A stretch of 64,000 nucleotides of DNA. Source: Paludibacterium purpuratum (GTDB lineage Bacteria; Pseudomonadota; Gammaproteobacteria; Burkholderiales; Chromobacteriaceae). The stretch covers positions 1-64,000 of the forward strand of contig NZ_SNZP01000016.1 in NCBI RefSeq assembly GCF_004363805.1. Reading direction: 5' to 3'. Under the pieces are notes generated by a model. The model was not told the DNA's origin. It did not search any database and saw only the letters and a program-made list of their open reading frames with translations. The position numbers were made by a program, and so were the translations under genes. Shown one piece after another: positions 31,375 to 59,380 of this stretch. The stretch's first letter is position 1. Every line of letters starts with the position of its first letter.

Positions 31375-31381
31375 ACACCGG

Positions 31382-31395
31382 GTTTCACGTGAAAC
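31382..31395. promoter_or_regulatory. parS site 2 (ParB-binding), GTTTCACGTGAAAC
   Basis: A perfect 14-base parS core lies in the 88-base tkt-gap gap, eight bases past the tkt terminator and 30 bases before the gap ATG. Confidence 0.88.
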
Positions 31396-31424
31396 CTGCC
31401 AGCACCTCCGGGAGAGAATAGAGT

Positions 31425-40962: not shown

Positions 40963-40988
40963 CCGGCGGTTTCACGTGAAACCGCCGG
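40963..40988. promoter_or_regulatory. parS site 3 inside an extended 26-bp palindrome
   Basis: The perfect parS core GTTTCACGTGAAAC at 40969-40982 is extended on both sides by CCGGCG and CGCCGG to a 26-bp perfect palindrome, between the convergent pilT-like and rsmA genes. Poly-A precedes it. It may act both as ParB site and as a transcript 3'-end hairpin. Confidence 0.88.
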
Positions 40989-48796: not shown

Positions 48797-50041
48797 AAGC
48801 CGCGACGCGATCAGTTCGACAATACGCTGGCTTGCGCCTCGATGCGCTTTGCTAAATGCCAAGCCAGCCTGTCCCATGGCCACACGGCGGGGCGCATCGA
48901 CCAATAATTGATTGATTAAATCAACTAATCGGTCGGAATCGCTTACCTGACAAGCGGCACCACATTCAAAAGCGATTTGACTTGCTTCAGCGAAGTTGAA
49001 GCAGGAAGGACCGATCAACACCGGCCGACCGATGCTGGCGGGCTCGATCAGATTTTGCCCACCCAGCGGCATCAGGCTACCGCCAATAAATACCAGGTCG
49101 GCGGCATGGTAGTAAGCGAACATCTCGCCCATGCTATCGCCCAACCATACCTGGGTCTCCGGCAGTACTGGCTGCTGATCGCTACGGCGCTGCAGCGTGA
49201 ATCCGTTGGCCAACGCCAACTGAGCCACTTCGTCGAAGCGCTCGGGATGTCGCGGTACGATCACCAGCAGCGCTTGCGGCCGATGAGCGCGCCAAGCCTG
49301 CAGAATCAACGCTTCTTCACCATCACGCGTACTGGCGCACACGACAATGGGTCGATCGCCCAAGCGCTGTTTGAACTCGGCGCCAAGCAATGCCTGCGCC
49401 GGCGGAGGCGTGAAATCATACTTGGTATTACCGCAGACCTGTGGATCGCTCGCCCCAAGTGCAGCCAAACGCTCTGCGTCGTCCTTCGACTGCGCCGCCA
49501 CGGCCGTGAGCTGGCGCAGGGCAGGGCGGATCAGCGCGGCAAAGCGCCGATAACCACGATATGACTTTTCCGATAGTCTGGCATTGGCCAAAAACAACGG
49601 GATGGATTGCTCATGCGCCGCAGCAATCAGATTGGGCCACAGCTCGGTTTCCATCAGCACGCCAAAACGGGGTCGATACGCTTGCAGAAATGCGTGTACC
49701 CCCTGTGGATAATCGTAGGGAAGATAGCGAATCTCCGCCTGTTCGCCATACAGCGCTTCGGCACAGGCACGTCCAGTCGGCGTCATCTGCGTGATTAATA
49801 GCGGTACGCCAGGCCATTGTTGCTGCAGCGCCTGGATCAATGGCATCGCGGCACGCGTTTCACCGACAGAAACCGCATGGACCCAGATAGCTCCCTGATG
49901 CTTAGCATTCAATGCACGGCCAAAACGTTCGTCCCAATATTCCAGATAAGCGGGCGTTTTTTTACCGCGCCGACGCAGATAACGACGTACCAGCGGCGTC
50001 GCCAGGCGCCAGAGGAGAGAATAGAGCGCACGCCAAATCAC
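48782..50041 (-). CDS. waaA: 3-deoxy-D-manno-octulosonic acid (Kdo) transferase
   Basis: A 419-residue GT30 enzyme that attaches Kdo to lipid A on the cytosolic face of the inner membrane. An N-terminal membrane anchor (MIWRALYSLLWRLATPLVRRY) precedes the Rossmann N-domain with IWVHAVSVGETRAA (about 51-64; includes the catalytic Glu) and YGEQAEIRYLPYDYP. The CMP-Kdo domain has LIVPRHPERFDEV, DSMGEMFAYYHAADLVFIGGSL and GGQNLIEPASIGRPVLIGP. Its ATG overlaps the waaC stop by four bases. Number of Kdo residues transferred cannot be told. Confidence 0.93.
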   Translation of the reverse strand: MIWRALYSLLWRLATPLVRRYLRRRGKKTPAYLEYWDERFGRALNAKHQGAIWVHAVSVGETRAAMPLIQALQQQWPGVPLLITQMTPTGRACAEALYGEQAEIRYLPYDYPQGVHAFLQAYRPRFGVLMETELWPNLIAAAHEQSIPLFLANARLSEKSYRGYRRFAALIRPALRQLTAVAAQSKDDAERLAALGASDPQVCGNTKYDFTPPPAQALLGAEFKQRLGDRPIVVCASTRDGEEALILQAWRAHRPQALLVIVPRHPERFDEVAQLALANGFTLQRRSDQQPVLPETQVWLGDSMGEMFAYYHAADLVFIGGSLMPLGGQNLIEPASIGRPVLIGPSCFNFAEASQIAFECGAACQVSDSDRLVDLINQLLVDAPRRVAMGQAGLAFSKAHRGASQRIVELIASRLSIHE

Positions 50042-51003
50042 TGTTGGAACCCCTGACGCGAACTCAGTGCGCTTAAAACCTCATCGATCGACGGCCGCTG
50101 ACCGACACCGCCGATATTCACCGCATACGGCGTTTCGCACACCCCTGTCCGCTTAGGGTCGGTATCGGTATAAATCGCCACGAGCGGCACATCCAGGGCA
50201 TTGGCCAGGTGACTCAAACCGGTATCCACACCCACCACGGCAGCGGCATGACCCAGTACGCCCGCGGCTTCGGTCAAGGTCATGCGCGGTGCCACCATGG
50301 CACCCGCTTGTACCTGTGCCAACCGTTCCGCACGCTGACGTTCGTGCTCGTTGCCCCATGGATAGATGGCGGTCAAGCCGTAATCGGCATTCAGACGCCT
50401 AGCCAGTTCAATCCAGTACGATTCAGGCCATTCCTTCGACGCGCGACTGGTTGCGTGTAGCAACATTACGTAGCTGCCGGCCGGCAGCCATTCGGCACGC
50501 TCGCCAGGTCTGATGCCGAATTGCGCGTCGCCAGCGACCGCATAGCCGAATGCCCTGGCAAAAAGCAAGCGGTTACGAGCCACGGCGGCTTGCTGCCAAT
50601 CGATGCGATAGGTCTTGTTATACAACAGGCTGGCCACTGGCTCGCGAATACTGCGCCAGTCGAAGCCTGCCACCGGGCCACCGGCAAGCCGTGCCGGAAT
50701 GGCGCTTTTCAACAAGCCTTGCGAGTCGATCACCATGTCCCAGTGCATCATGCGCAACTGCTGTTTCAGCTGACGGATTTCACGCCAGGTTGACGGCGAC
50801 AGGATACGCCCGCGCCAACGGCGCCAAGCCAGTGGGATGACCTGGTTGACGGCCGGGTGCAGCCTGGCGATGTCGGCGAAGTTTTCTTCTGCAAGCCAGC
50901 TGATATTCAGATTTGGGTAGTGCTTGACCAATTCGGTGATGGCGGGCCAAGTATGGATCAGATCCCCCATCGACGACGTCCGCACAATCAAGACATTCAT
51001 CAT
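50038..51003 (-). CDS. waaC: lipopolysaccharide heptosyltransferase I
   Basis: A 321-residue GT9 enzyme that adds the first L-glycero-D-manno-heptose to Kdo of the LPS inner core. It begins NVLIVRTSSMGDLIHTWPAI with the catalytic Asp. The middle DSQGLLKSA and GPVAGFDWRSIREPVASLLYNK follow, and the ADP-heptose domain has LLHATSRASKEWP, YPWGNEHERQRAE and GVDTGLSHLANALDVPLVAIY. Two ATGs (51003, 51000) are adjacent with no clear ribosome-binding site; I use the outer one. It is coupled to waaA. Upstream is the DnaA-box region. Confidence 0.92.
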   Translation of the reverse strand: MMNVLIVRTSSMGDLIHTWPAITELVKHYPNLNISWLAEENFADIARLHPAVNQVIPLAWRRWRGRILSPSTWREIRQLKQQLRMMHWDMVIDSQGLLKSAIPARLAGGPVAGFDWRSIREPVASLLYNKTYRIDWQQAAVARNRLLFARAFGYAVAGDAQFGIRPGERAEWLPAGSYVMLLHATSRASKEWPESYWIELARRLNADYGLTAIYPWGNEHERQRAERLAQVQAGAMVAPRMTLTEAAGVLGHAAAVVGVDTGLSHLANALDVPLVAIYTDTDPKRTGVCETPYAVNIGGVGQRPSIDEVLSALSSRQGFQQ

Positions 51004-51027
51004 GGGCGGCATTGTATACGGCCGAGT

Positions 51028-51041
51028 CGTGGTTAACCACG
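51028..51041. repeat. 14-bp perfect palindrome upstream of waaC
   Basis: CGTGGTTAACCACG stands 25 bases before the waaC start and could be an operator or part of the adjacent DnaA-box region. Confidence 0.4.
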
Positions 51042-51061
51042 TTGTTTTCCTTCTGGCGGAA

Positions 51062-51448
51062 TGTGCATAAGCATGCCTTTTCAGTCATGCCAAAACTTAT
51101 CCACAAGCTGTCCATAGGAAGCAGAGTTATCCACCAACCGTACCATGAACAAGGTAATTGATTGATCTAGCATAGAAATAACTAGTTACCCACAGCAAAC
51201 AGTCACCTTCTTCTTATTCATCTATTTTAAAAAGGGCATAATAGTTAACAGATAGCGGCCAAACGAGCCATGTGCCAATCGTACACAGCCACATGCCAAC
51301 AACTGTCTACTAGCTTGTGCATAAGCGGGAAGCTGTGCACTAACCTAGAATTATCCACAAGCCATTCGCAATGAAATCATAGGGTAGAACACAGGAAAGC
51401 GATAAAAATAACCTATTGAAATAAAAATAAAATAACTGGTTATCCACA
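51062..51448. other. oriC: DnaA-box cluster in AT-rich intergenic region: candidate replication origin or DnaA-titration site
   Basis: The 500-base gap between divergent waaC and the GT2 gene is much more AT-rich than its surroundings and has no ORF. Perfect DnaA boxes TTATCCACA are at 51097-51105, 51351-51359 and 51440-51448, all on the plus strand. Near-matches TTATCCACC (51127-51135) and TTACCCACA (51186-51194) share that orientation. TTATGCACA occurs on the minus strand at 51062-51070 and 51316-51324. AT-rich tracts at about 51211-51260 and 51401-51440 could be unwinding elements. A further perfect box (51800-51808) lies inside the next gene. dnaA, dnaN and gyrB are not in the window, so origin function is inferred. 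Confidence 0.55.
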
Positions 51449-51503
51449 GCTCATTGGCATCTTCTACCAGTATCATCAAATATAAAAAAGGCAACTAGAT
51501 ACA

Positions 51504-52262
51504 ATGCAATGTTCTTTCAGCGTGGTCGTGATTACCTACAATGCCGCTGCTCAGCTAGATCAGTGTTTGCAAAGTTGTGCGTTTGCCGATGAAATTGTCG
51601 TCGTCGATTCCGGAAGTACCGATGCCACCGTACAGATCGCCGAAGGACATGGGGCACGCGTGATACAACAGACATGGCTTGGATTCGGGCCACAAAAGCA
51701 ATTTGCCGTCGAACAGGCGAAACACGACTGGGTGTTATGTCTAGATGCGGATGAATGGCTGTCGATAGAATTAACTAAAAATATCAAAGAGATACTTAGT
51801 TATCCACAGTTCGATAGCTATCACTTTCCTCGCTGCAACAAGTTCATGGGGCGCTTTTTACGGCATGGCGAGGGGTATCCGGATTTAAGCCTGAGATTGT
51901 TCGATCGTCGCAAGAACCGTTGGTCGGACGATGTGGTACATGAATATGTGAAGTGCGGCACAGCACCTGGTCGTCTGCAGGGCGATCTGATGCACGAATC
52001 GGGTGAGGATATCGCGCTGTACCTGACCAAGCAAAACCGCTATACCAGTCTGCAGGCCAGACAGATGTATGAGAAAGGAAAGCGCGTTTCCGTGGCCAAG
52101 ATGCTGGTCAGCCCATTGATCAGGTTCATCAAGTTTTACTTGATTCGCCAAGGATGGCGCGACGGTTTGCCTGGATTGGTTCATATTTCCATTGGCTGTA
52201 TGAATTCTTTTATAAAGTATGCGAAACTGCGGGAGTTTTATCGTTTGGAGCAAGCGTCATGA
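51504..52262 (+). CDS. waaE: GT2-family glycosyltransferase (WaaE/KdtX-like, LPS core)
   Basis: A 252-residue family 2 glycosyltransferase. SVVVITYNAAAQLDQCL starts the nucleotide-sugar domain, DEIVVVDSGSTDAT follows, and CLDADEWLS (about 79-87) is the metal-binding DxD region. WSDDVVHEYVKC is typical of the WaaE/KdtX group, which adds beta-glucose to heptose I in Klebsiella LPS. A C-terminal hydrophobic patch (FIKFYLIRQGWRDGLPGLVHI) probably touches the membrane. The position next to waaC and waaA fits a core role. The symbol is used for the group, and the sugar is not proven. It overlaps the epimerase gene by four bases. Confidence 0.8.
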   Translation: MQCSFSVVVITYNAAAQLDQCLQSCAFADEIVVVDSGSTDATVQIAEGHGARVIQQTWLGFGPQKQFAVEQAKHDWVLCLDADEWLSIELTKNIKEILSYPQFDSYHFPRCNKFMGRFLRHGEGYPDLSLRLFDRRKNRWSDDVVHEYVKCGTAPGRLQGDLMHESGEDIALYLTKQNRYTSLQARQMYEKGKRVSVAKMLVSPLIRFIKFYLIRQGWRDGLPGLVHISIGCMNSFIKYAKLREFYRLEQAS

Positions 52263-53227
52263 GGGTGTTGGTAACCGGGGCGGCGGGATTCATTGGACGC
52301 GCGGTGTGCGAAAAGCTGTTGGACATAGGGCAACATGCCGTATTGGCTGTGGATAACCTGAATGACTACTACTCCGTCGATCTGAAGCACGCACGATTGG
52401 CCACTTTGCAGGGCCGCGAGGGGTTCGAATTCCATCAGTTGGACATCGCCGATGCCGCGGCATTGGATAAGCTGTTTAAAACTCAGCCTGTCGACTACGT
52501 CATTCATCTGGCTGCCCAAGCCGGAGTGCGATATTCGCTGAAGAATCCCCATGCCTATGCACAGAGCAACCTGCTCGGCATGACCAATTTATTGGATGTT
52601 TGCCACCGCTATTCGATTAAGCATCTGTTGTTCGCCAGCTCGAGCAGCGTATACGGTAAGAACAGCAAGGTTCCGTTCGCCGAAGACGATCGTACCGACG
52701 AACCGGTTAGCTTTTATGCCGCCACCAAGAAAGCCGGCGAAGTCATGGCGTACAGCTATGCGCACTTGTATGGGCTGCCGACCACCGTGCTGCGTTTCTT
52801 CACGGTCTACGGGCCGTGGGGACGTCCGGATATGGCGCCTTGGATGTTTACCGAATCAATCATTCAAGGCAAGGGAATTAAAGTATTCAATAATGGCGAT
52901 TTGCAGCGTGATTTTACCTTCATCGACGATATCGTCGAAGGTGTGCTGAATGTCATGCCGCGTGTACCGACCGGATCGGTACCCTATGCCCTGTTCAACA
53001 TCGGCAACAACAACCCTGTCAAGCTGATGGATTTTATTCGCTGTGTCGAGGCTGCCTGCGGCAAGGAAGCGATCAAGACCTATCTACCGATGCAGGATGG
53101 CGATGTGCCGATTACTTATGCGGATACCACGCGTCTGCACGAACTGACGGGCTTCGCACCATCGACGCCGTTAAGCGAGGGAATTCAGCGTTTTGTCGAT
53201 TGGTACCGTGGATTTTACTGCGTATAA
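52259..53227 (+). CDS. UDP-glucuronate 4-epimerase-like SDR enzyme
   Basis: A 322-residue extended short-chain dehydrogenase/epimerase. The NAD motif GAAGFIG is at 7-13, the catalytic Ser region is in FASSSSVYG (about 118-126), and the YxxxK pair lies in FYAATKKAGE (about 143-152). VLRFFTVYGPWGRPDMA and NIGNNNPVKLMDFI match the UDP-glucuronate/galacturonate epimerase group (LpsL/CapI). The product would supply galacturonate for LPS core or capsule. The ATG overlaps the waaE stop (ATGA), so the enzyme is co-made with a core glycosyltransferase. The precise sugar remains inferred. Confidence 0.82.
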   Translation: MRVLVTGAAGFIGRAVCEKLLDIGQHAVLAVDNLNDYYSVDLKHARLATLQGREGFEFHQLDIADAAALDKLFKTQPVDYVIHLAAQAGVRYSLKNPHAYAQSNLLGMTNLLDVCHRYSIKHLLFASSSSVYGKNSKVPFAEDDRTDEPVSFYAATKKAGEVMAYSYAHLYGLPTTVLRFFTVYGPWGRPDMAPWMFTESIIQGKGIKVFNNGDLQRDFTFIDDIVEGVLNVMPRVPTGSVPYALFNIGNNNPVKLMDFIRCVEAACGKEAIKTYLPMQDGDVPITYADTTRLHELTGFAPSTPLSEGIQRFVDWYRGFYCV

Positions 53228-55905: not shown

Positions 55906-56564
55906 CAGAACACGAACCGTTCCGGTTGCAGTGCTTCGCTGCCTGCAAGGCGCGGAATCACCGTTTCGTATAATTTGGTTTCCGTGAAGTTCGCTTCGCT
56001 TTCACGTCGGATCAGGCAGACCGTCATCACCGGTTCATCACCGACAGTGACAATCATGCGACCCCCGATCGCTAATTGTTGTTTGAGCGTTTCCGGTACG
56101 ACGGGGACCGACCCGCCGACAAAGATCGCATTGAACGGTGCCTGCTTTTCCAGCCCCTCAAGCCCATTTCCTTCTATCAGCTGGACATTGTCCAAACCTG
56201 CTTGATGCAAGCGAGCGGCAGCCGACGCCAGCATGGCGGCATCGCATTCCATGCTAAAAACTTTTTCCGTCAATTTAGCCAGCAGTGCTGTGACGTAGCC
56301 GCTGCCGGTGCCGATTTCGAGCACCTTGTCGCTGGGTTGGAGTACCAAATCCTGCACCATGCGGGCTTCTTGCTTTGGCTGCAGCATGCGGCTGCCGTTG
56401 GGGAGAGGCAATTCGACATCGGTGAACGACAAGGCGCGTTGTTCTTCTCCGACAAAATCCTCACGTTTCACGTGAAACAGCAAATCGAGAATAGTTGGAT
56501 CGAGAACATCCCAAGGACGAATCTGTTGCTCAACCATGTTGAATCGCGCTTGTTCGAAATCCAT
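55905..56564 (-). CDS. pcm: protein-L-isoaspartate O-methyltransferase family protein
   Basis: A 219-residue SAM methyltransferase of the PIMT family, which repairs isoaspartyl residues in aged proteins. DFEQARFNMVEQQIRPW begins it, SRMLQPKQEARMVQDL carries the region before the SAM fold, and motif I is LEIGTGSGYVTALLA (about 83-97). FNAIFVGGSV and LKQQLAIGGRMIVTVG close the core. In the pcm-rhodanese arrangement of betaproteobacteria the protein may act on other substrates. The usual SPH motif of Pcm is replaced by LQPK. The ATG at 56564 is used; a GTG three codons upstream is possible. A perfect parS site lies inside the reading frame. Confidence 0.82.
   Translation of the reverse strand: MDFEQARFNMVEQQIRPWDVLDPTILDLLFHVKREDFVGEEQRALSFTDVELPLPNGSRMLQPKQEARMVQDLVLQPSDKVLEIGTGSGYVTALLAKLTEKVFSMECDAAMLASAAARLHQAGLDNVQLIEGNGLEGLEKQAPFNAIFVGGSVPVVPETLKQQLAIGGRMIVTVGDEPVMTVCLIRRESEANFTETKLYETVIPRLAGSEALQPERFVF
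56465..56478. promoter_or_regulatory. parS site 4 (ParB-binding), inside pcm
   Basis: GTTTCACGTGAAAC lies in the pcm coding sequence, where it specifies the residues around LFHVKR. Its exact palindrome in a coding frame suggests selection for ParB binding. Confidence 0.88.
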
Positions 56565-56627
56565 GCAGAACACCCCAAGGAATTATGACAATAACTTGCG
56601 ATTATCCCATATTTGCCTTACCTTCAC

Positions 56628-56736
56628 AGCATCGCTAGGGGTCCCGCTACCCGTTTTCGTATTCCGACAACAGTAGTGGGTGAGAAATACCCTTCGAACC
56701 TGATCCGGTTAATTCCGGCGTAGGGAAGCGGTGCTG
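56628..56736 (+). promoter_or_regulatory. TPP riboswitch (THI element) of thiC
   Basis: The thiamine-diphosphate aptamer is complete. P1 is formed by CAGCATCGCT (56628-56637) and AGCGGTGCTG (56727-56736). The pyrimidine-sensing helix contains GGGTGAGAAATACCC, and the pyrophosphate-sensing side contains CCTGATCCGG and CCGGCGTAGGGAAG. Ligand binding should hide the thiC ribosome-binding site or stop transcription; the AGGAGG lies 38 bases beyond the aptamer. Confidence 0.96.
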
Positions 56737-56776
56737 CTCTGTAGCATTTCATGCCCCGCGCCGTTTCATCGCCTAG

Positions 56777-58690
<1,914 letters not shown>

Positions 58691-59322: not shown

Positions 59323-59362
59323 ATCTCCCCATACCCCGTGGCGCTTGTCAGCGTCATGGGGT

Positions 59363-59376
59363 GTTTCACGTGAAAC
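59363..59376. promoter_or_regulatory. parS site 5 (ParB-binding), upstream of the MazG-like gene
   Basis: The full 16-base consensus TGTTTCACGTGAAACA is present at 59362-59377, three bases before the ATG of the next gene, where a ribosome-binding site would normally be. Confidence 0.9.
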
Positions 59377-59380
59377 AGCG

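What the first reader, a model, noticed from the sequence alone, without database searches (positions are those of the whole stretch)
51062..51808. DnaA-box cluster in an AT-rich gap: candidate oriC or datA-like site beside the LPS-core genes
Three perfect TTATCCACA boxes in the same orientation, two one-mismatch boxes and two inverted TTATGCACA boxes fall in 390 bases of ORF-free AT-rich DNA between divergent genes, and another perfect box lies just inside the next gene. Elsewhere in the window I noticed only isolated copies. parS sites lie 5 and 8 kb to the right and 10, 20 and 35 kb to the left. This combination is what a chromosomal origin looks like, yet the usual dnaA-dnaN neighbours are missing.
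Basis: partly seen in the sequence, partly recalled or inferred. Interest (0 to 1): 0.75.

Follow-up and report, generated by a model that had tools for sequence, protein, structure and literature searches.

The report
Chromosome replication origin far from dnaA
The cluster is almost certainly the place where this bacterium starts copying its chromosome; it lies beside cell-surface sugar genes instead of beside dnaA, and it is built as two tandem copies of one starting module, found in every relative of its family that was read.

Summary
The 491-bp gap 51013-51503 holds 7 DnaA boxes (<=1 mismatch); dinucleotide shuffles of it give 0.17 on average, at most 2. The contig's cumulative GC skew has its minimum at 51552; 0 of 2000 block permutations give so large a change. 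parS-like sites flank it. dnaA is on another contig, with one box upstream and no skew switch.

In two complete relatives, sampled, the skew switches at this locus, not at dnaA. Origin and dnaA are 15-235 kb apart in 23 genomes of the family, taken from named hits to be Chromobacteriaceae.

New detail: the origin is a tandem pair of modules (inverted box, box, box, 12 nt, C/T-rich and AT-rich tail), 244-257 bp apart, 309 in one genome. All six boxes are kept in 24 of 24 family genomes read. The right-hand tail resembles the box/spacer/DnaA-trio unwinding system; a pattern for it occurs once each in 51 of 61 family genomes, the reversed control once in all 61.

A datA-like site is not supported. 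Function is inferred, not measured.

The parts
51013..51503 (.). oriC: AT-rich intergenic gap with 7 DnaA boxes between waaC and a glycosyltransferase gene
   Evidence: conserved in the family
51062..51194 (+). Module 1 boxes: inverted TTATGCACA 51062, TTATCCACA 51097, TTACCCACA 51186 (plus TTATCCACC 51127 between)
   Evidence: start-to-start spacings 35 and 89 recur in module 2
51195..51240 (+). Module 1 tail: 12-nt spacer 51195-51206, DnaA-trio-like CTTCTTCTTATT from 51207, then AT-rich
51316..51448 (+). Module 2 boxes: inverted TTATGCACA 51316, TTATCCACA 51351, TTATCCACA 51440
51449..51503 (+). Module 2 tail, proposed main unwinding site: 12-nt spacer 51449-51460, trio-like CTTCTA at 51461-51466, TCATC, then AT-rich run to the start codon
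   Evidence: pattern once per genome in 51 of 61 family genomes
51155..51165 (+). IHF-like site (YAAN4TTGA, consensus recalled), 31 nt before the last box of module 1
   Evidence: exact match 31-32 nt before that box in 7 of 20 family loci
51409..51419 (+). IHF-like site, 31 nt before the last box of module 2
   Evidence: exact match 30-31 nt before that box in 12 of 20 family loci
51800..51808 (+). Perfect DnaA box inside the glycosyltransferase gene; possible accessory box, or coding coincidence
   Evidence: at the same place also in G002 and G003 of the same genus (L004, L005)
56464..56479 (.). parS-like site (1 mismatch)
59362..59377 (.). parS-like site (perfect)
40968..40983 (.). parS-like site (2 mismatches)
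31381..31396 (.). parS-like site (2 mismatches)
50038..51012 (-). waaC, LPS heptosyltransferase I: left neighbour, beside the origin also in four genomes where the right neighbour differs
   Evidence: TIGR02193 over cut-off
51504..52262 (+). Family 2-type glycosyltransferase gene (type recalled): right neighbour
   Evidence: no NCBIfam model over its cut-off

Best explanation
The gap is oriC, the origin of the main chromosome. DnaA made from a distant dnaA gene binds six positioned boxes arranged as two tandem modules, helped by an IHF-like bend before the last box of each module. From the last box of module 2 (51440), and perhaps also of module 1 (51186), DnaA extends over a 12-nt spacer onto trio-like triplets and melts AT-rich DNA up to the start of the glycosyltransferase gene, where the helicase is loaded and two forks leave. 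parS sites around it hand the new origins to ParB/ParA. Shown: box cluster, its conservation in the family, skew switch, parS cluster, distance from dnaA, tandem design. Inferred: DnaA and IHF binding, site of melting, origin activity, segregation.
For: Box enrichment. Skew minimum of contig C16 at 51552, 0 of 2000 block permutations. G024, 20 stretches: 8 of 8 before the locus negative, 9 of 9 from 1.17 to 3.1 Mb positive, 2 of 2 at 3.6 and 4.1 Mb negative, one spans the locus and switches there; G003: -0.028 before and +0.081 after the gap, 6 of 7 left-arm stretches negative, 10 of 11 right-arm stretches positive. parS-like sites within 55 kb of the origin: 8 of 9, 5 of 5, 3 of 6, 4 of 9 (20 of 29); within 55 kb of dnaA 0 of 29. 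dnaA loci of 22 of the 25 family genomes of the first set: 19 have one box, 1 has two, 2 (cut at the contig start) none. Tail pattern once each in 51 of 61 genomes, reversed control 1 hit. Six boxes at <=2 mismatches in 24 of 24.
Against: No replication, binding or depth data. The own genome is a draft (34 contigs), so its skew test is local; the wider test is by sampling in two relatives. A polarity test with the recalled KOPS motif showed no switch on C16 (6 forward/0 reverse left, 6/2 right). In G003 the first 15 kb after dnaA have negative skew, and one left-arm stretch is +0.011; local switches in G017 (-0.034 to 0.000) and G010 (-0.009 to +0.006) are weak. The weakest 60-bp duplex of the gap starts at 51374, before the last box, not in the module 2 tail, which fits less well with melting at the tail. 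The loose trio rule (>=3 NTN, any spacer 0-16) is not clearly enriched: 11 of 24 for module 2, 4 of 24 for module 1, against 34% of shuffles. IHF-like sites match exactly in only 12 and 7 of 20 loci.
Confidence: 0.95

Rival explanations
1. A datA-like titration or DnaA-ATP hydrolysis site: DnaA is bound here to limit initiation, while replication starts elsewhere.
For: Box cluster with IHF-like sites, which datA, as recalled, shares.
Against: The skew switches here and not at dnaA; parS-like sites gather here; outside contig C16 no two perfect boxes of the own genome lie within 16 kb of each other on one contig, so no rival cluster of perfect boxes is seen; a box-spacer-tail element is conserved.
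Confidence: 0.02
2. Transcriptional control: DnaA boxes in a divergent promoter region regulate waaC and the glycosyltransferase.
For: The gap lies between divergent genes and must hold their promoters.
Against: The cluster stays beside waaC in four genomes where the orthologous glycosyltransferase gene is not the neighbour (G007, G016, G013, G021). In G037, of another family, a similar gene pair (waaC 44%, glycosyltransferase 60%) stands 86 bp apart without a single box with <=1 mismatch. Skew and parS are not explained. A regulatory side role is not excluded.
Confidence: 0.02
3. A second or former origin beside an active one at dnaA.
For: In G027 and G033 (other families of the order) boxes lie just after dnaA, the usual place.
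Against: The 22 family dnaA loci read have at most two boxes; among the 20 sampled stretches of G024 the skew goes from negative to positive only once, at the gap.
Confidence: 0.01

Closest known systems
Bacterial chromosomal oriC away from dnaA (E. coli type location; recalled)
   Same: DnaA-box cluster in an AT-rich gap at the skew minimum, dnaA tens of kb or more away. [quoted passage not shown]
   Different: Neighbours are waaC and a glycosyltransferase gene, not those of E. coli; two tandem modules.
BUS / DnaA-trio unwinding system (B. subtilis, H. pylori; PMC8287927, passages seen)
   Same: Box, 12-nt spacer (reported peak 10-13), trio-like triplets, AT-rich DNA.
   Different: Three or more strict trios in only 9 of 24 (module 2) and 1 of 24 (module 1) family genomes; the layout is present twice in tandem. 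By its methods that survey was left with a single candidate in over 99% of genomes.
Laribacter hongkongensis oriC predicted by Ori-Finder, eight DnaA boxes (PMC3135505, passages seen)
   Same: Computed origin in a relative (its kinship is recalled), similar box number.
   Different: Place and structure are not given in the passages seen; not compared here.
Bipartite oriC of H. pylori (PMC8235120, passages seen)
   Same: Two DnaA-box clusters.
   Different: There two box clusters with one unwinding element are described; here two similar modules stand in tandem in one gap, each with a tail.
datA of E. coli (recalled)
   Same: DnaA boxes and IHF-like site.
   Different: Skew switch, parS cluster and unwinding-like tail.

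Membership tests
Bacterial oriC | DnaA-box cluster beyond chance | tested here: met
   7 observed, 0.17 expected, max 2 in 1000 shuffles
Bacterial oriC | At the GC-skew switch of the chromosome | tested here: met
   C16 minimum 51552; sampled arms of G024 and G003. Whole-genome curve of the own draft not made
Bacterial oriC | AT-rich, easily melted DNA next to a box | tested here: met
   Weakest 60-bp stretch starts at 51374, between the last two boxes; 8 windows of 60 bp in the 64 kb are at least as weak, itself included. It is not in the module 2 tail. Melting itself not testable
Bacterial oriC | Conserved in relatives | tested here: met
   24 of 24 genomes read; 51 of 61 by tail pattern
Bacterial oriC | Start of replication in vivo; DnaA binding | not testable with these tools
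   Needs depth sequencing, ChIP, deletion
BUS (box, spacer, DnaA-trio) | Box followed at <=16 nt by >=3 consecutive trios | tested here: inconclusive
   Window: module 1 meets it (CTT CTT CTT ATT), module 2 has two trios. Family: >=3 strict trios in 9 of 24 (module 2) and 1 of 24 (module 1) against 1.2% of shuffles; loose rule 11 of 24 and 4 of 24 against 34%
datA-like titration site | DnaA boxes away from the origin | tested here: not met
   The site is at the skew switch
dnaA-adjacent origin | Next to dnaA | tested here: not met
   15-235 kb from dnaA in 23 genomes with both on one contig or closed chromosome; different contigs in the own draft

The most novel reading that the evidence does not exclude
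A twin origin: two tandem, same-facing, complete initiation modules about 250 bp apart, each able to melt DNA, both kept by selection since the ancestor of the family. They might load the two helicases separately or act as main and reserve unwinding sites, so that bidirectional start is built into the sequence.
Probability: 0.3. Interest if true: 0.7.

Novelty: new variant of a known kind. Interest (0 to 1): 0.5.

Why it matters
Genome records of this family that are numbered from dnaA, as G003, G005 and G064 appear to be (dnaA within the first 1.6 kb), do not start at the origin, and ori/ter growth estimates that use dnaA would be shifted by 15-235 kb in the genomes measured. The family gives a natural series in which origin and dnaA have separated by varying amounts while the origin's inner spacing is kept to within a few bases. 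If both tandem modules melt DNA, the origin offers a direct way to ask how two helicases are loaded at one start site.

Tried and rejected
KOPS polarity (motif recalled) on C16 and part of G003: C16 shows no switch, few sites. IHF forward consensus: no matches in 20 loci. A CAGT-type motif in the tails: only 15 of 24 (module 1) and 16 of 24 (module 2); not used. Boxes inside coding genes: the one at 52348 recurs at about that place in several family loci but lies in the epimerase coding sequence, so may be a coding constraint; the one at 51800 is at the same place in G002 and G003 only among those I compared by position. G031 (other family): two box clusters and two parS sites near 5.13 Mb, but the sampled skew does not separate them from dnaA; left open. 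Literature: 10 searches; none of the listings shown points to a paper placing an origin at this locus or describing such a tandem origin, but only open-licence papers are held, several listings were capped, and the DoriC database could not be consulted, so it may hold a predicted entry.

Rows dropped before counts: G022 (fragment at a contig edge) is the one of 25 family genomes of the first set not among the 24. Of the 10 of 61 genomes without the tail pattern, six (G005, G006, G007, G014, G016, G017) show the cluster when read, four (G022, G060, G061, G074) were not read. The place of the pattern hit beside waaC was checked only in genomes that were read. For G012 (L022) a wider spacing window was allowed after its 309-bp spacing was seen; the module 1 anchor was taken as the best box in a 16-base window, which favours a match slightly; for G007 and G016 the module 2 anchor was the last perfect box. 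In the tail comparison six same-genus rows of 24 were left out. G059 has origin and dnaA on one closed chromosome but was left out of the distances, its length not being known exactly (24 eligible, 23 used). Three of 25 family dnaA loci (G006, G008, G015) were not fetched.

Full report
Observation. Seven boxes with at most one mismatch lie in the 491-bp gap; 1000 dinucleotide-preserving shuffles of the gap give 0.17 on average and never more than 2. The whole draft genome (4,036,026 bp, 34 contigs) holds 18 perfect boxes, of which three are in the gap and one about 300 bp inside the next gene.

Is it the origin? The window is the first 64 kb of a 98,825-bp contig. Its GC skew is -0.033 left of the gap and +0.041 right of it; the cumulative minimum is at 51552, and none of 2000 permutations of 1-kb blocks gives so large a change. 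The contig with dnaA (135 kb, dnaA about 15 kb from its right end) has positive skew in 13 of 14 pieces of up to 10 kb, the other being -0.001, with no switch at dnaA. In the complete relative G024 (4.36 Mb, 20 stretches of 20 kb) the sign is negative in 8 of 8 stretches left of the locus, positive in 9 of 9 from 1.17 to 3.1 Mb, and negative at 3.6 and 4.1 Mb; locally it goes from -0.062 to +0.029 across the locus, with dnaA 131 kb inside the positive arm. In G003 (same genus, 19 readable stretches and one masked) the local change is -0.028 to +0.081; 10 of 11 stretches of the right arm are positive and 6 of 7 of the left arm negative, the exceptions being the first 20 kb at dnaA (-0.045) and one stretch of +0.011; one further stretch spans the locus. 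Local changes in G005 and G009 agree, those in G017 and G010 are weak. A polarity test with KOPS motifs did not show a switch on the contig.

parS. With at most two mismatches, 29 sites occur in four complete relatives: within 55 kb of the origin lie 8 of 9 (G003), 5 of 5 (G005), 3 of 6 (G017) and 4 of 9 (G024), that is 20 of 29; within 55 kb of dnaA lies none. In the own genome five of six such sites are on contig C16.

Conservation in the family. Named matches to the neighbouring glycosyltransferase are Paludibacterium (83%), Vogesella, Chromobacterium, Aquitalea and Crenobacter, besides more distant beta-proteobacteria; Paludibacterium belongs to Chromobacteriaceae, Neisseriales. So the family is taken to be Chromobacteriaceae and the genus Paludibacterium-like; the genome handles themselves are unnamed. 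The 20 family loci with a close match to this gene (63% identity or more) have 4 to 7 perfect boxes each in 3.7 kb; the ten other loci fetched in that call, eight from other families and two from family genomes with a less similar gene (G013, G016), have none. In G013, G016, G007 and G021 the cluster is still beside waaC. So waaC, rather than the glycosyltransferase, is the constant neighbour in what was read.

Separation from dnaA. The 22 family dnaA loci read (of 25 family genomes in that search) carry one box with <=1 mismatch (19), two (1) or none (2, cut at the contig start). Where origin and dnaA share a contig or closed chromosome, 23 genomes measured, they are 15,072 to 235,456 bp apart, median 102 kb. 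In two other families of the order (G027, G033) boxes sit just after dnaA. In G028, another family, a cluster lies 414 kb from dnaA, with parS-like sites around it, and the sampled skew changes sign between it and 65 kb further on; that cluster is 5 kb from hemL, which in the window is also 5 kb from the origin. Whether this is one shared move or two is not settled.

Anatomy. The direct-repeat search gives a 51-nt repeat at 71% identity and an exact 11-nt repeat, both at a spacing of 254 bp. Each module reads: inverted box; a box starting 35 bp further on; a box starting 89 bp after that; 12 nt; tail. In 24 of 24 family genomes read all six boxes are within two mismatches of TTATCCACA, with module spacing 244-257 bp, 309 in one. 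At one mismatch or better the six boxes are kept in 24, 21, 22, 23, 23 and 24 genomes; random anchors have a box at these two offsets (<=1 mismatch) in 0.015% and 0.035% of cases. Tails of the two modules resemble each other (mean alignment score per base 0.51 between genomes, 0.53 within a genome) above shuffles (0.34), but less than each resembles its own kind (0.55 and 0.60), 18 rows. This fits an old duplication with both halves kept; a tree was not made.

Unwinding element. The pattern box (TTNTNNACA), 12 nt, CTTCNNC, 8 nt, TC occurs in 51 of 61 family genomes, exactly once in each; read backwards, it occurs once in all 61. The pattern was drawn from some of the same genomes, so it measures conservation rather than discovery. 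Read as DnaA-trios, module 2 has at least two strict trios in 19 of 24 and three in 9 of 24, against 13% and 1.2% of shuffled tails; module 1 has two in 5 of 24 and three in 1 of 24, that one being the window's own genome. By the looser published rule module 2 (11 of 24) is little above and module 1 (4 of 24) below the shuffles (34%) (rule from PMC8287927, passages). The BUS label is therefore likely for module 2 and open for module 1. IHF-like sites 30-32 nt before the last box match exactly in 12 of 20 (module 2) and 7 of 20 (module 1) loci. By nearest-neighbour stability the weakest 60 bp of the gap start at 51374, before the last box, and not in the module 2 tail; this speaks against a simple picture of melting at the tail alone.

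Mechanism. Most likely DnaA fills the six boxes, IHF bends the DNA before the last box, and DnaA spreads onto one strand of the tail and melts the AT-rich run that ends at the glycosyltransferase start codon. All of these steps are inferred from layout.

Known or new. That oriC need not be near dnaA is known (PMC10225481, passages). A computed oriC with eight boxes is reported for Laribacter (PMC3135505, passages). I found no paper on this location or on a tandem design in the listings of ten searches of open-licence papers (calls listed under Tried and rejected), which does not show that none exists.

Noticed in passing
window 56627-56743 (+): TPP riboswitch (RF00059, 70.9 bits) directly before a thiC-like gene at 56783 (gene name recalled).
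   Followed up: no
G031 C1 5138050-5138900 (L179 8050-8900): In another family a box cluster contains two similar copies, about 390 bp apart, of an element with AGTAGTAGTAGTTAAC next to a DnaA box: a second case of a doubled trio-type element; a further 8-box cluster lies 44 kb away.
   Followed up: partly
G028 C1 1695150-1695700 (L180 9150-9700): Origin-like cluster 414 kb from dnaA between a GTPase gene (RbgA-like) and a thioredoxin-like gene (names recalled from the translations), with one trio-type tail.
   Followed up: partly
G007 (C13, C14, C17), G016, and one pair in G013: Many pairs of perfect DnaA boxes 29-30 bp apart scattered over these genomes, for example G007 C13 279125/279155 and C14 283214/283244; possibly a repeat family or dispersed DnaA sites.
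   Followed up: no
window, from about 36 kb on and most from 50 kb on: G+C falls from about 62% in the left half to 48-57% around and right of the origin.
   Followed up: no
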